Positions 14,606-23,653 of a stretch of 64,000 nucleotides of DNA are shown piece by piece. Position 1 is the first letter of the stretch. Each line of letters starts with the position of its first letter. The stretch is from [Leptolyngbya] sp. PCC 7376 (GTDB lineage: Bacteria > Cyanobacteriota > Cyanobacteriia > Cyanobacteriales > MRBY01), in assembly GCF_000316605.1 (NCBI RefSeq), contig NC_019683.1:3580036-3644035 (forward strand), written 5' to 3'. The notes beneath the pieces are model-generated. The model was not told the DNA's origin, did not search any database, and saw nothing but the letters and a program-made list of their open reading frames with translations. The position numbers and the translations under genes are program-made.

Positions 14606-15346
14606 ATGCCAAGTCCTAACGATCTAGATTTACTTAATGAAACCTTCGGTACTCCAGGAGAGGATGCCGAGGTCACTGCGTCTCAACCTGATGCGACTGA
14701 TATGGTTGAGTCCCTTCGTGCTGAAGATAAAACGAAGCGTATGATCGCGGCGCGGTATTTCTGTGATCATCGCGATGAACGGGCGATCGCCCCATTAATC
14801 AATATTATTGCGACGAATGATTGTCCATTAACGCGGGTGAGTGCAGCCTATGCGCTCGGTCGTAATCCTTCTGCAGAGGCTGTCCCCACGCTGATCGAGC
14901 TTCTAGAGAATGATTGGAATGGCTATGTCCGAAAAGGGGTTGTCTGGGCGCTCGGAAATTGTGGCGATCGCCGCGCTGTAGAGCCTCTAATTCATGCTCT
15001 CAAAACCGATATTTCAGCCGTTAGACTCTGGGCTGCGAGTAGCGTCGCCCAAGTCGCAAAACTTGAATATGACGACATTATCCAATCCATTCCACCTCTT
15101 ATTGCAGGATTACGCCGCGACAAGATGGCCGCAGTCCGCAGTAATTGCGCTTGGTCTCTCGGACAACTTTGCCGCGAAATGCCTTCTAACGTTATCTATG
15201 CGACGGCGATCGACGCATTAATCGAATCTCTGGTAGAAGATGAAGATATTGGTGTGAAAGAAGATGCCCGTGCAGCATTATTACGAGTCGGCGATCCTAA
15301 CGGACTCCAAATGATCGAAGAACTCGAAGCAGAAGGCTTAATTTAG
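14606..15346 (+). CDS. HEAT-repeat protein, phycobilisome-lyase-like
   Basis: After a 30-residue acidic N-terminus the protein is made of about five HEAT-like repeats, visible as ERAIAPLINII, AEAVPTLIELL, RRAVEPLIHAL, IQSIPPLIAGL and ATAIDALIESL, each followed by a helix such as VRSNCAWSLGQL. The fold is the one used by CpcE/CpcF-type bilin lyases, but the family also includes cyanobacterial HEAT proteins with other roles (for example the IaiH-like group), so lyase activity is not established. It sits immediately before the insert that carries a phycobiliprotein-protease fusion, which may be coincidence. Confidence 0.85.
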   Translation: MPSPNDLDLLNETFGTPGEDAEVTASQPDATDMVESLRAEDKTKRMIAARYFCDHRDERAIAPLINIIATNDCPLTRVSAAYALGRNPSAEAVPTLIELLENDWNGYVRKGVVWALGNCGDRRAVEPLIHALKTDISAVRLWAASSVAQVAKLEYDDIIQSIPPLIAGLRRDKMAAVRSNCAWSLGQLCREMPSNVIYATAIDALIESLVEDEDIGVKEDARAALLRVGDPNGLQMIEELEAEGLI

Positions 15347-15388
15347 AATCTGAGCATAATAAGATTTTCACAAAAATTTCTTTGATTT

Positions 15389-15850
15389 ATGAATAGCCTA
15401 GATTTTGGAACAGATCTTTTCACCCTGGTAGAACAACTAGAAAAAAATATATCTGAGCTAGACCGTGAAGAAAAAGAATCTGGCATCACACCTTTTTCTG
15501 GTTCAGACCCTTTGAGAAATTTAAAAAGAAGTGTGGCTTACAAAATAGCCTCTAAAACTGGCCGTACTGTTCGTGATTGTGAACAGGAAGCTAATGAACT
15601 TGTAGATAAAATCCAACAAGAATTAACAAAACCAAACTCTAAAAAGCGAATTTGTGCAGCTCTTCGCCTTCTATCAAATGACATAAGTGGAATTTCTGTC
15701 GGTACTGTTTCTGCCGTGATTGCTACTCTATTATCAGGTGGTTTAATTACTCTCTCTTTTTCTTCACCTATTATGATTGCGGCTATAGGCGGATTTGTTT
15801 TTATACGCTCTAGCATTGAGCTAATCTGTTTTGACAATCAAAATGATTGA
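15389..15850 (+). CDS. Hypothetical small membrane protein, 153 aa
   Basis: Residues 1-105 are soluble, charged and mostly helical. Two closely spaced hydrophobic spans follow (about 108-128 and 133-150: SVGTVSAVIATLLSGGLI, then IMIAAIGGFVFI), leaving a short polar tail. No family is recognised. The gene is more AT-rich than its neighbours and lacks HIP1 sites, and it is convergent with the biliprotein-protease gene at a distance of 41 bases. It begins 42 bases after the HEAT gene on the same strand. A helical head plus membrane hairpin resembles small membrane-active partner proteins, but that is only an architectural remark. Confidence 0.65.
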   Translation: MNSLDFGTDLFTLVEQLEKNISELDREEKESGITPFSGSDPLRNLKRSVAYKIASKTGRTVRDCEQEANELVDKIQQELTKPNSKKRICAALRLLSNDISGISVGTVSAVIATLLSGGLITLSFSSPIMIAAIGGFVFIRSSIELICFDNQND

Positions 15851-15891
15851 CTATAAACAAGATGAGTGATGTCAAATATCTTTCATAAGGG

Positions 15892-17619
15892 TTATTTTGG
15901 AATGCTCATCTTTAAAGCAGAAACAATACTCAACATTGGTCTAAATAATACTTCCTTTGGATGTCCAATGATATTAGACGATGAAATTAAAATGCCACAT
16001 GCAGAACAGGTCACGCTTTCGCGCCATTCTCTGCTGTAATGTTCTTCAAGATGTTTTGGAATAGGATATTGATCGTGATGACCTCCTACTAAAAGTGCTC
16101 CTGAATCACCAGGAGCAGCTTCTATATCAACGCTAAATGAGGGGATTATTGAAGGATTATAACCAGCAGTCAAAACACCACTATTGCGAACATAGCCTAC
16201 TTGATGCTTGCTAGTTGCACCAAACATTTGTACCGGCATATTAGCAAATATAGGAACTATCTTTTTTGGTATCTGATCAACCCACTTCAAATTAAGATCA
16301 ATTTTAGATTTGAGACTTTCATCTAATTTTATGAGACTTATATCTAAATTTTTGATTTTTTCTTGGTAAGAATGACTTTCTTTGGAGAAAATAGTACCTA
16401 TCTGAGGAGAAGTAAAAGTATCTCTATGGGAATGAATACTCTGTGTATTAACTTCAAATCCATGACCAACTGTTAAAGCATAAATATTTTCTTGGAACTT
16501 AGAATCGCAAGAATCAATGATTTTTTTTTCTGCCAGAAAAGTACTCAAAGTCACTTTCTTTCCAAAGGTGCCAACACTACTCTTTCCGACAATTGCATCT
16601 CCACTCTGTATCTTCACAACCGACGTAGATTGCTTCATATCATCCTTTATTTCAAGGGGAGTTTTAAAATTTAGTGGAATTGGCCTATTGGCCAATTCTA
16701 TAACTATCGGGACTTTCGAAGGAAATTTTGATAGAGCATTGATTGATGATTCAACTTGAATGTAATCAGGTATAGAAAACTTGGATTTTATTTCCTTTTC
16801 TGGAAGAAAAGTTGTGAACACAACCTTTCCAACTAAAACTTGCTTTTTATCAATTTCCTTTTCTCCAACAGCAATTGAGACAAATCCTGGCTTATCCTCA
16901 AAGTTAGACATTTTTTCATAAAGTGTAGTCATTACTTCGCGTTCCCACCATACTTTTTTTCTTAATGGGTATGGCATCAGTTGCAAAGACTCAAAAAAGA
17001 CTTTTGCTTCTTCTTCAATTAGAGAATTCGGATAATTTTTCAAAATATATTGTGCTAATCTATCCATTTTGAGCCATTCATGATAGCTTTGTGGCTCCCA
17101 ACTAGCGTTGTTGCTTGATAGTAATTGAGTATCTTTGTTCAGCCCATTAATAAGATAATCCAGGCAATCAGTCACTATTTCCAAATTGTCTTCATCAATG
17201 AGTTCTATTAATACTCTCTTCATTGACTGTAATGCTTCTAATACTCTGCTTATTGGTATATCTAGGCTAGTATATGTCTCTGCCAATCCATTCAATACTC
17301 GTTTGTCTAAGATCGAGTAATCTCCAGCGATCATTGTGTATGTTGAATACCGAAGGAAAAAGTCTAGATCGCGAAGACAAGCAGTATATTGACCGGAAGA
17401 AACCTTTTCAAACTCAGATGTATCCCAAAAATTCGATATTGTCTGCTTTAAAATTTGGTCATGTTTTCTAGCAATTTTTTCTGCTATAGCAGTTAAACGA
17501 GTGTTTTCTTCTAGATACTTAGCTAGAGACTTCAAAGTATCAGAACTGATATATCGCCCTTGAGAATCAGCTGAGTTAATAACGGAAGTCACGACATCAT
17601 TCTGCTTGTTTATACTCAT
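15892..17619 (-). CDS. Allophycocyanin-beta-like domain fused to a trypsin-like serine protease
   Basis: Residues 8-161 read as an ApcB/ApcF-type phycobiliprotein. SVINSADSQGRYIS matches the ApcB N-terminus, and from YTACLRDLDFFLRYSTY through AGD, SILDKRVLNGL, ETYTSLDIP and QSMK the match to recalled ApcB runs without gaps. C81, R83 and D84, the chromophore cysteine and its neighbours, are kept. The RPGGN loop before it, with methyl-Asn71, is missing by about five residues. A helical linker (175-240) and a strand-rich middle (245-365) follow. Residues about 376-575 form a trypsin-like domain with H386 (ALTVGHG), D426 (NLDISLI) and S506 (APGDSGALL). There is no signal peptide, so it is probably cytoplasmic. 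Known phycobiliproteins are about 160-180 aa and have no protease. The ATG has no obvious ribosome site. Domain calls are strong; function is unknown. Confidence 0.88.
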   Translation of the reverse strand: MSINKQNDVVTSVINSADSQGRYISSDTLKSLAKYLEENTRLTAIAEKIARKHDQILKQTISNFWDTSEFEKVSSGQYTACLRDLDFFLRYSTYTMIAGDYSILDKRVLNGLAETYTSLDIPISRVLEALQSMKRVLIELIDEDNLEIVTDCLDYLINGLNKDTQLLSSNNASWEPQSYHEWLKMDRLAQYILKNYPNSLIEEEAKVFFESLQLMPYPLRKKVWWEREVMTTLYEKMSNFEDKPGFVSIAVGEKEIDKKQVLVGKVVFTTFLPEKEIKSKFSIPDYIQVESSINALSKFPSKVPIVIELANRPIPLNFKTPLEIKDDMKQSTSVVKIQSGDAIVGKSSVGTFGKKVTLSTFLAEKKIIDSCDSKFQENIYALTVGHGFEVNTQSIHSHRDTFTSPQIGTIFSKESHSYQEKIKNLDISLIKLDESLKSKIDLNLKWVDQIPKKIVPIFANMPVQMFGATSKHQVGYVRNSGVLTAGYNPSIIPSFSVDIEAAPGDSGALLVGGHHDQYPIPKHLEEHYSREWRESVTCSACGILISSSNIIGHPKEVLFRPMLSIVSALKMSIPK

Positions 17620-22004: not shown

Positions 22005-22378
22005 TTTGGACGACGCTCCTCAACCCATTTTTCTGCTTCTTCGAGCGTATTAAAATCTTCTGGATATCGCTCATGTAAAACCAGAGCTAAACGATCCCAA
22101 TCGCGGTCTGGGTCAAGACCTAAACCTTCTGGTAGTAAAGCTCCACAAAGTAATGGCGGAGAATCTTCGCTACTGAGTTGACTCGATGTCAAATTTCGAG
22201 CATGACGAAAATCTGTTTTCAACAAAATTGAATTGTTGAGGTTGGCGTCTTCGAGGTTGGCGTCTTCGAGGTAGGCGTTAGAGAGGTTGGCGCGAAAAAG
22301 ATGCTTGCCAACTTGCTTTGTGAAAGTCTCAACTCCTAGAGAATCAGCATAGAGAATAATATTTAGCAATCGATTTTG
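22001..22378 (-). pseudogene. Pentapeptide-repeat protein, 5' end lost to IS1
   Basis: The remaining frame has pentapeptide repeats (ANLSNAYLEDANLEDANLNN, the A(D/N)LXX pattern) whose DNA shows 15-bp tandem units at about 22238-22299, and an acidic C-terminal part ending EEAEKWVEERRPK. The open frame extends to an ATG at 22429, but its first 17 codons are IS1 DNA, so the native start and promoter have been removed. The function of the original protein is unknown. It overlaps the acetyltransferase start by ATGA. Confidence 0.75.
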
Positions 22379-23139
22379 GGCGTTGGTGAATAGAGGTATG
22401 AATCTATGAGGGTCGAGGGATAGGGACATCCCAGAACTTGAGATAGTGAATCAGCAATCGAATCGAATGCTTTAACATCTCTAAAGACTTGGAATAACAT
22501 AAGGTCTTTCGATGGAGTCGAGCGAGATAATGCCGCAATCGAGTGTTCTCTCCTTCGACACGAGTCATGTAGGTCTTACTGATAATCTGGTCACCATCGG
22601 GTACAAACATGGGATAAACATGCCAGCCATCTGTGATGTAGAAGAAGCATCTCCAGAGACTAACCATTGCCCATAATGGTTTGAATGTCTCTGCGCTTCT
22701 GTCACCAACAGTCCAAGCGAGAATACCTGGTTGAAAGTGGTCTACGGCAGTCCAGAGCCAGACCTTATTTTTTTAGCACCGACGAATGTTTGAAGTTCAT
22801 CGAGTTCGCCAACCTGAGGCACCTGCTCAGGTGCATAAGCATCAGGTAGTAATTCAGCGACTTGTTTGACCCAAGTGATGACGGTAGTGTGGTGCACTCC
22901 TTTCACCCGTTCAATGGCTCGAAAGCCCATACCGTTGACATACATTTTGAGGCATTCACGTTTGAAGGACTTTGAGTAGCCGAGCTGGCTGTAGCGGTCG
23001 ATAAACTGACGACCGCAATCTACACAGATGTGATTCTGTTTGCCTTTTTTCTTTCCATTCTTACGGATATGAGTAGATTGGTATTCTGGACATTCCATTG
23101 CGTCAACAACCTCCATTCATACCTCTATTCTGCAACGCC
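22379..23139 (-). mobile_element. IS1-family insertion sequence, 761 bp
   Basis: The ends are 25-bp inverted repeats with two mismatches (left 22379-22403, right 23115-23139), sharing GAATAGAGGTATGAAT. The size matches IS1. The 8-9 bases beside each end do not repeat. The left flank is a broken pentapeptide gene and the right flank a broken IS256 gene, so a deletion or rearrangement followed insertion. Confidence 0.88.
22404..23098 (-). CDS. IS1-family transposase made by -1 frameshift (InsAB')
   Basis: The first frame (from ATG 23098) encodes a zinc-finger InsA-like part (CPEYQSTHIRKNG, CVDCGRQF) followed by a helix-turn-helix-like region, and stops at 22742. At 22768-22774 a run of seven A on the minus strand allows a -1 slip. 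The new frame continues WLWTAVDHFQPGIL, YFYITDGW-like FYITDGWHVYP and KTYMTRVEGENTRLRHYL to the stop at 22404. The fused product would be about 231 aa, the length of IS1 InsAB'. I treat the frame change as programmed rather than a defect because the slip site is in the usual place and both frames are otherwise intact. Confidence 0.85.
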
Positions 23140-23653
23140 GAAGCGGTGTTCCCAAAAACGAGAGTGCAATTATGTATCGTTCATCTGATACGAAATAGCC
23201 TGAAATTCGTTTCTTGGAAAGACCGTAAGTCCGTGGTGTCAGACCTCAAGCCCATTTATCTGGCCGCCACAGTTGCCAAGGCAGAATCTGCCTTAACTGC
23301 TTTTGCGGAGCGTTGGGACGGCATCTACCCCACTATTTCCCAGACATGGCTGAATCATTGGGACAACATCATTCCATTATTTGATTATCCAGCTCCCATC
23401 CGCCGCATCATTTACACCACCAATGCCATTGAGGCAGTCAATCGCTCTTTGGGCAAGGTGTTAAAAACCAAGAGCATGTTCCCCCATGCAGATGCTGCCC
23501 TGAAATTGCTGTATTTAGCCCTGAAGAATTTGATGAAGAGATGGACGATACCAATACCCCATTGGAAAAGGGCCTTAAGCTATTTTGCCATTGATCATCC
23601 AGAGTATTTTCTTCACTAATTTTCTTGGCTTACACAAAATTCTTGACACTCCC
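23140..23653 (+). pseudogene. IS256-family transposase, 3' half only
   Basis: The frame from 23140 to 23619 reads EAVFPKTRVQLCIVHLIRNS and then SWKDRK, YTTNAIEAVNRSLGKVLKTK and a C-terminus HPEYFLH, the second half of an IS256/mutator transposase. The N-terminal half with the first catalytic Asp residues is missing; the open frame borrows 14 codons from IS1. After the stop, GGCTTACACAAAATTC and TTGACACTCCC (to 23653) look like the IS256 right-end repeat. It cannot move by itself. Confidence 0.85.

What the first reader, a model, noticed from the sequence alone, without database searches (positions are those of the whole stretch)
15892..17619. Phycobiliprotein-protease fusion: an allophycocyanin-like domain carrying a serine protease
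One intact 575-residue frame joins an ApcB/ApcF-like antenna domain (residues 8-161) to a trypsin-like domain with H386, D426 and S506. Phycobiliproteins are, in established knowledge, light-harvesting subunits with no enzymatic partner on the chain. I know of no described protein of this architecture. It could be a light-gated protease, a protease targeted to phycobilisomes or photosystems by an antenna-like tag, or a sensor of antenna state. The frame is continuous and both domains keep key residues, so it is not a chance join of fragments.
Basis: partly seen in the sequence, partly recalled or inferred. Interest (0 to 1): 0.95.

Follow-up and report, generated by a model that had tools for sequence, protein, structure and literature searches.

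The report
Antenna-protein domain fused to serine protease
A cyanobacterium carries a gene, apparently acquired from elsewhere, that joins a light-antenna-like protein domain to what looks like a serine protease; it may let the cell react when its light antenna is attacked, but this is untested and no close copy was found.

Summary
Window 15892-17619, minus strand, is one 575-aa frame. Residues 13-160 match Pfam Phycobilisome (E=1.8e-38) and model onto allophycocyanin beta. H386, D426 and S506 sit in trypsin-like motifs. The protease half matches no Pfam or PHROGs family; an 18-member NAL1-like profile ranks it first of 1270 (E=0.0019), but other profile tests were weaker and its structure prediction failed. 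So 'divergent NAL1-like/trypsin-like protease' is likely, not proven.

The antenna half keeps Cys81 and 30 of 40 ApcB-invariant residues at 81-125, but 4 of 17 in the bilin-pocket loop. The gene and a convergent neighbour form a low-GC islet absent from 5 sister genomes. No orthologue was found. One other genome has an ApcB-like domain fused to an antitoxin-like part beside a RES gene.

Best reading: an antenna-derived docking or bait domain controlling a protease, paralleling published GUN4-trypsin fusions. Light gating is not excluded, not favoured. Function is inferred only.

The parts
15892..17619 (-). Whole fusion gene, 575 aa, ATG start at 17619
17125..17598 (-). Phycobiliprotein (ApcB-like) domain, residues 8-165; Cys81, Arg83, Asp84 kept; loop before Cys81 5 residues shorter and degenerate
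   Evidence: PF00502 E=1.8e-38; ApcB closest; fold match to 1all_B, probability 1.00; residue count
16888..17124 (-). Helical connector, about residues 166-244, no known family
   Evidence: low-confidence helices in AF2; no Pfam hit
15895..16887 (-). Putative NAL1-like/PA-clan serine protease, residues 245-575, with H386, D426, S506
   Evidence: 18-member profile rank 1 of 1270, E=0.0019; C half rank 1 of 2492, N half rank 5 of 2877 and not significant; 8-member profile E=1.8; AF2 failed
15389..15850 (+). Convergent 153-aa protein with a hydrophobic C-terminal part (about residues 98-148, probably two segments); possible partner or substrate, inferred from position and composition only
   Evidence: only sub-cut-off family hits, E 0.016 and above; no credible relative in 291 order genomes, own included, viral contigs or plasmids

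Best explanation
It is a horizontally acquired two-domain protein: an allophycocyanin-beta-like domain used as a docking or bait module, joined to a divergent NAL1-like serine protease. I think it works as a guard protease. The antenna-like domain binds old partners of ApcB (probably ApcA or the phycobilisome core) or itself and keeps the protease quiet or in place; when the phycobilisome is dismantled or attacked, for example by phage NblA, or in starvation, the protease is released or activated and cleaves a target, possibly the hydrophobic protein encoded next door. Shown: the fusion, the phycobiliprotein fold, the triad residues, the foreign composition, the islet's absence from 5 sister genomes. 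Supported but not proven: protease family and activity. Inferred: docking, the trigger, the target and the defence role.
For: Antenna domain certain. It keeps 30 of 40 ApcB-invariant residues at 81-125 (with Arg90 and Tyr94) and 12 of 20 at 1-30 (with Asp13); I recall these three as alpha-beta contact residues. Only 4 of 17 are kept in the loop 63-80, as if binding were kept and light-harvesting relaxed. Low-GC islet of two convergent genes, absent from 5 of 5 sister genomes both beside the HEAT gene and elsewhere; one sister has a leucine-rich-repeat Roco-like gene at that spot (named by reading). A second ApcB-like domain is fused to an antitoxin-like part beside a RES gene (PF08808 E=9.8e-9). 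The NAL1-like bait matched 13 plasmid records, 5 of them under genes annotated DNA/RNA non-specific endonuclease (two translated), the make-up of the published NucA-trypsin conflict systems (PMC7159879, passages). The same paper reports GUN4 on chains with trypsin and suggests that GUN4 senses photosynthetic status. Cyanophage Ma-LMM01 transcribes nblA early and strongly (PMC4103541).
Against: No orthologue, so no conserved neighbourhood to argue from. No NTPase, nuclease or recognised effector-associated domain in the two islet genes; PADLOC finds nothing in the fusion. The antenna domain also lost most invariant residues at 31-62 (4 of 25 kept) and 126-161 (9 of 29 kept), which weakens the idea that its contacts were kept. 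The 8-member profile gave only E=1.8; in the pairwise profile test 2 of 269 unrelated proteins scored as high glocally and 5 of 269 locally; the N-terminal module alone is not significant; AF2 gave pLDDT 31. PMC4103541 says there is no direct evidence that the Ma-LMM01 NblA degrades the antenna, though it reports degradation by a PaV-LD nblA in Synechocystis, and one model there has NblA acting on rods, whereas this domain is core-type. Binding, trigger and target were not tested.
Confidence: 0.4

Rival explanations
1. A housekeeping-type antenna protease: the ApcB-like domain targets the protease to phycobilisomes, which it helps to degrade or trim during acclimation.
For: ApcB-like domain with 59 of 131 ApcB-invariant residues kept; phycobilisome degradation is a marked stress response (PMC4103541, section 7).
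Against: Sporadic, foreign-looking gene with no orthologue found; [quoted passage not shown]
Confidence: 0.25
2. A light- or bilin-gated protease: a bilin on Cys81 changes state and switches the protease.
For: Cys81, Arg83 and Asp84 kept; phycobiliprotein paralogues outside the antenna (BBAGs) bind bilins (PMC10151467, passages).
Against: The loop before Cys81 lost the PGGN and paired-arginine stretch and 5 residues. Phycobiliproteins are not known as photoswitches (recalled).
Confidence: 0.15
3. A non-functional or decaying chimera, or a catalytically dead protease-like domain used only for binding.
For: Singleton; protease half unrecognised by standard libraries; [quoted passage not shown]
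Against: Intact 575-codon frame; triad residues and the GDSG motif kept.
Confidence: 0.15

Closest known systems
Allophycocyanin beta subunit (ApcB), PF00502 Phycobilisome
   Same: Same fold and family; about 40% identity; bilin cysteine kept
   Different: Fused to a protease-like half; shortened loop before Cys81; below the NCBIfam apcB cut-off (124 vs 228 bits)
ApcE core-membrane linker
   Same: An antenna domain inside a longer chain
   Different: ApcE's other domains are linkers, not enzymes (recalled; the long frames were taken for ApcE by length, not profiled)
NAL1-like serine proteases (PF25608 NAL1_N, PF25819 Nal1_C) and the trypsin of NucA-trypsin systems
   Same: Co-linear motifs and triad order in the glocal alignment; Asp and GDSG columns shared with 15 members
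   Different: No Pfam match; N-terminal module not significant on its own; MAFFT did not align the His; no nuclease partner
GUN4-trypsin chains of cyanobacterial conflict systems (PMC7159879)
   Same: Tetrapyrrole-binding photosynthesis-related domain on a chain with a trypsin-like protease (passages)
   Different: GUN4 and phycobiliproteins are different families (recalled); no sequence comparison was made here; PMC10156173 on GUN4 does not mention trypsin in its main text
ApcB-antitoxin-like fusion of genome G036 (L062:5861-7057)
   Same: ApcB-like domain at the N-terminus of a conflict-type gene
   Different: Different partner; 72% identical to ApcB and placed among ApcB rows in the tree, though that fork has support of only 82/92; probably a separate capture

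Membership tests
Phycobiliprotein (PF00502) | Profile match above curated cut-off | tested here: met
   132.4 bits vs 22.2
Phycobiliprotein (PF00502) | Phycobiliprotein (globin-like) fold | tested here: met
   AF2 ten-residue blocks 56-90 pLDDT over residues 1-160, lowest at 71-80; Foldseek to 1all_B probability 1.00, target TM 0.72; the alignment used held ApcB and ApcA rows
Phycobiliprotein (PF00502) | Bilin-binding cysteine | tested here: met
   Cys81 in ACLRD, invariant in the 27-row alignment
Phycobiliprotein (PF00502) | Intact bilin-pocket loop | tested here: not met
   4 of 17 ApcB-invariant residues kept at 63-80, 5 residues deleted; that this loop shapes the pocket is recalled
Phycobiliprotein (PF00502) | Carries a bilin and harvests light | not testable with these tools
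   needs expression and spectroscopy
Allophycocyanin beta (apcB equivalog) | TIGR01337 curated cut-off | tested here: not met
   124.2 vs 228.15 bits
NAL1-like/PA-clan serine protease | Curated Pfam match | tested here: not met
   0 families at E=10
NAL1-like/PA-clan serine protease | His-Asp-Ser triad in order with GDSG | tested here: met
   H386, D426, S506; all three aligned; in MAFFT alignment A9 Asp and GDSG are invariant over 16 rows but the His is not aligned
NAL1-like/PA-clan serine protease | Profile similarity to family members | tested here: inconclusive
   E=0.0019, rank 1 of 1270 with 18 members; E=1.8 with 8 members; halves E=0.0096 and 0.2
NAL1-like/PA-clan serine protease | Chymotrypsin-like fold | tested here: inconclusive
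   AF2 mean pLDDT 31.3
NucA-trypsin / EAD conflict system | NucA nuclease partner on chain or in operon | tested here: not met
   none in the fusion, the 153-aa gene, or the HEAT and GroEL neighbours by Pfam; wider surroundings not profiled
NucA-trypsin / EAD conflict system | Recognised effector-associated domain | tested here: not met
   no other domain in the fusion by Pfam, NCBIfam or PADLOC; whether these libraries hold all published EADs was not checked
RES toxin-antitoxin (L062) | RES toxin gene beside antitoxin | tested here: met
   PF08808 35.8 bits vs 23.2
RES toxin-antitoxin (L062) | Recognised antitoxin domain on the fusion | tested here: inconclusive
   HTH_17, HTH_7 and Rv2175c_C all below cut-off; no NCBIfam antitoxin model

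The most novel reading that the evidence does not exclude
Cyanobacteria turn copies of their own light antenna into immune bait: an antenna-derived domain wired directly to a protease (here) or to an antitoxin-like protein (genome G036), so that an attack on the phycobilisome, for instance by phage NblA, sets off a defence or cell-death response.
Probability: 0.25. Interest if true: 0.88.

Novelty: new variant of a known kind. Interest (0 to 1): 0.62.

Why it matters
Phycobiliproteins are known as antenna subunits and bilin-binding relatives. A chain that couples one to a protease would make the antenna a signal input rather than only a light collector, and would link antenna breakdown, which some cyanophages are thought to provoke, to a cellular response. 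It can be tested in a lab strain with one gene and a handful of point mutants. A second antenna capture beside a toxin gene suggests that the theme may be wider than one oddity.

Tried and rejected
Orthologue hunting: weak hits of the C-terminal part. Of 4, I read the loci of 3 (L032, L033, L034): unrelated proteins; L035 was not read. Of 2, L158 held a protein that I read as GGDEF/EAL; L159 was not read. Relatives of the 153-aa protein: 3 weak hits, all read (L056 also), none convincing, though L056 too ends in a hydrophobic stretch. Its sub-cut-off family hits (TraC 0.016, a xenorhabdolysin-A-like model 0.024, PADLOC PDC-M14B 0.033) I take for chance.

Pfam NAL1_N: 0 of 120 relatives, own included. 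Profile A9, which contains the window's own sequence, in 292 phylum genomes, own included: 9 of 292 matched; besides the own one, two strong (G294, G269) and six weak. Of these eight I read three loci, L188, L191, L192; no antenna domain was seen in them by eye.

One search found only G036 in full length among 388 order genomes, own included. These capped listings are topped by ordinary ApcB, so rarer fusions could be hidden. PBP searches of phages and viral contigs found nothing; plasmids gave 6 records, not opened.

Profile members: of 13 plasmid records I fetched 9 and used 8 (one has no annotation); of 19 viral loci I used 10, dropping near-identical ones and two whose frame lacked GDSG in my filter.

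Flawed control: the decoy set included the window's own protein through locus L053; removed. The tree has weak forks and a long branch for the fusion, so only 'the ApcB side' is claimed. Promoter-like sites were fewer than in shuffles (4 vs 9.6) and terminator-like sites 3 vs 1.2: not used.

Full report
OBSERVATION. The frame at 15892-17619 is on the minus strand: ATG at 17619, 575 aa, no stop. Pfam finds one family, PF00502 Phycobilisome, E=1.8e-38 at residues 13-160. NCBIfam's best model is apcB with 124 bits, below its 228-bit cut-off. PADLOC and PHROGs find nothing in it. PDB sequence search puts allophycocyanin beta first at 3e-31. The stated catalytic residues are correct: H386 (VGHGF), D426 (LDISLIK), S506 (PGDSGALL).

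ANTENNA HALF. AlphaFold2 with a 27-row alignment gave ten-residue block means of 56-90 pLDDT over residues 1-160, lowest at 71-80, and below 60 beyond; the alignment held ApcB and ApcA rows, so some of this is expected. The 50 PDB matches shown by Foldseek are phycobiliproteins, best 1all_B (E=2.1e-9, probability 1.00, TM 0.72 by target length). Against 131 columns invariant in 14 ApcB rows, this domain keeps 59: 12 of 20 at positions 1-30, 4 of 25 at 31-62, 4 of 17 at 63-80, 14 of 19 at 81-100, 16 of 21 at 101-125, 9 of 29 at 126-161. Cys81, Arg83 and Asp84 stay; the loop before Cys81 lost five residues. From general knowledge, the N-terminal hairpin and Asp13, Arg90 and Tyr94 serve alpha-beta pairing and the loop shapes the bilin pocket. 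That binding was kept and light-harvesting relaxed is inference, and the losses at 31-62 and 126-161 speak against it. In a 20-row tree the domain falls with ApcB and an own-genome paralogue (L068, ApcF by my label) on a long branch with weak forks.

PROTEASE HALF. No Pfam family at E=10 and no credible PDB sequence hit. I noticed by eye a module like the N-terminus of NAL1-like proteases. Of 13 plasmid records, 5 have the match under a gene annotated DNA/RNA non-specific endonuclease; two of these, L167 and L168, were translated, 632 and 626 aa; the nuclease part was not profiled. Tests: hhalign with 8 members P=0.0036; HMM of 8 members E=1.8, rank 3 of 571, where rank 2 was the window's own protein leaked into the decoys; profile alignment glocal z=4.5, 0 of 300 shuffles and 2 of 269 decoys as high, local z=4.0, 0 of 300 and 5 of 269; the two higher glocal decoys do not look like proteases, the next three look like HtrA; HMM of 18 members E=0.0019, rank 1 of 1270, rank 2 the leaked own protein at 0.0037 and rank 3 a shuffle at 0.2, with two stretches in order, and hhalign P=0.00046; C half alone rank 1 of 2492, E=0.0096; N half alone rank 5 of 2877, E=0.2, four shuffles above it. 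AlphaFold2 on residues 222-575 with 6 relatives failed, mean pLDDT 31.3. I conclude that a divergent NAL1-like or at least trypsin-like protease is likely, not proven; activity is untested.

SETTING. GC is 0.35-0.39 in the 1-kb windows over the islet (starts 15000-17000) and 0.44-0.51 in most others between 8 and 26 kb, though 0.386 at 23500. Third-position GC is 0.269 for the fusion and 0.214 for the convergent 153-aa gene, against 0.417-0.465 for the PEPC, HEAT and GroEL genes. The 153-aa protein has a hydrophobic C-terminal part and no credible relative found. In 5 of 5 sister genomes the HEAT gene is next to PEPC without the islet genes nearby, and the same five have no match to the C-terminal part or the 153-aa protein anywhere. 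Four (G001-G004) have a UbiX-like gene after HEAT, and G005 has a 944-aa leucine-rich-repeat Roco-like protein there (names by my reading). The spot is variable. The own genome has 13 PF00502 matches, two of them in one frame, including this one.

DISTRIBUTION. All 60 relatives, own included, have phycobiliprotein matches; only the own genome gives a full-length match (capped listing, best first). Residues 168-575 have no credible relative in 386 phylum genomes or 388 order genomes, own included; the sets overlap. The full protein found nothing in genome contigs or viral contigs, the C-terminal part nothing in plasmids or phages. One other fusion emerged: G036 has a 398-aa protein with an ApcB-like domain (PF00502 E=3e-55) and an antitoxin-like C-terminus (HTH_17, HTH_7 and Rv2175c_C, all below cut-off), directly beside a RES gene (PF08808 E=9.8e-9). 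It was the only full-length match among 388 order genomes. Its domain is 72% identical to ApcB and groups among ApcB rows with moderate support, so it is probably a separate capture.

LITERATURE. PMC7159879 (passages) describes conflict systems with trypsin effectors, NucA-trypsin systems, and cyanobacterial GUN4 on chains with kinases, caspases, trypsin and TIR, read there as a sensor of photosynthetic status; 'phycobili' and 'allophycocyanin' do not occur in its main text. PMC8195603 (passages) and PMC10907252 (passages) also have no 'phycobili'; PMC10156173 on GUN4 (passages) has no 'trypsin'. PMC4103541 (abstract and section 7) reports early, strong transcription of phage nblA, states that direct evidence of its action is lacking, and cites degradation by a PaV-LD nblA in Synechocystis. 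PMC10151467 (passages) describes bilin-binding globins related to phycobiliproteins. Nine full-text searches were made, of which some were aimed at a phycobiliprotein with a protease or defence part; none listed a paper that by title or abstract describes such a chain. Only the listings were seen for all but the six papers named. Most subscription papers and bioRxiv are absent from that library.

MECHANISM AND VERDICT. The anatomy suggests a sensor or docking domain plus an effector. The sporadic foreign islet, the second antenna capture beside a toxin gene, and the GUN4-trypsin precedent favour a conflict-type guard over a housekeeping antenna protease, but only modestly. The light-gated idea is disfavoured by the damaged loop. 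From memory, the 5,125,950-base chromosome resembles that of Leptolyngbya sp. PCC 7376; this was not tested. Interest 0.62: a real architecture that I found nowhere described, with a plausible, testable role, held back by its singleton status and an unconfirmed protease fold.

Noticed in passing
L062:5228-7057: ApcB-like domain fused to an antitoxin-like C-terminus, directly beside a RES-domain gene, in genome G036.
   Followed up: partly
window 15389-15850: Convergent 153-aa protein with a hydrophobic C-terminal part, same low GC as the fusion gene, only sub-cut-off family hits.
   Followed up: partly
L073:1480-2055 (own genome): Divergent phycobiliprotein paralogue of 191 aa next to what look like bilin reductase genes (names by reading).
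   Followed up: no
L075:1465-1935 (own genome): 156-aa phycobiliprotein relative beside proteins that look like V4R proteins, resembling the BBAG-V4R clusters of PMC10151467 (names by reading).
   Followed up: no
L057:106-2940: At the same spot after the HEAT gene, sister genome G005 carries a 944-aa leucine-rich-repeat Roco-like protein; the spot may be a hot spot for insertions.
   Followed up: no
window 22376-23619: Two transposase-like fragments and an 89% complementary inverted repeat (22376-22403, 23115-23142), a likely insertion-sequence remnant.
   Followed up: no
L064:7241-17894: Coiled-coil-like protein with a hydrophobic end, in a region with a reverse transcriptase and two FGS-like proteins, perhaps a diversity-generating element (by reading).
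   Followed up: no
L169-L187: NAL1-like proteases occur on 19 IMG/VR viral contigs, several of them near-identical, in frames of up to 654 aa.
   Followed up: no
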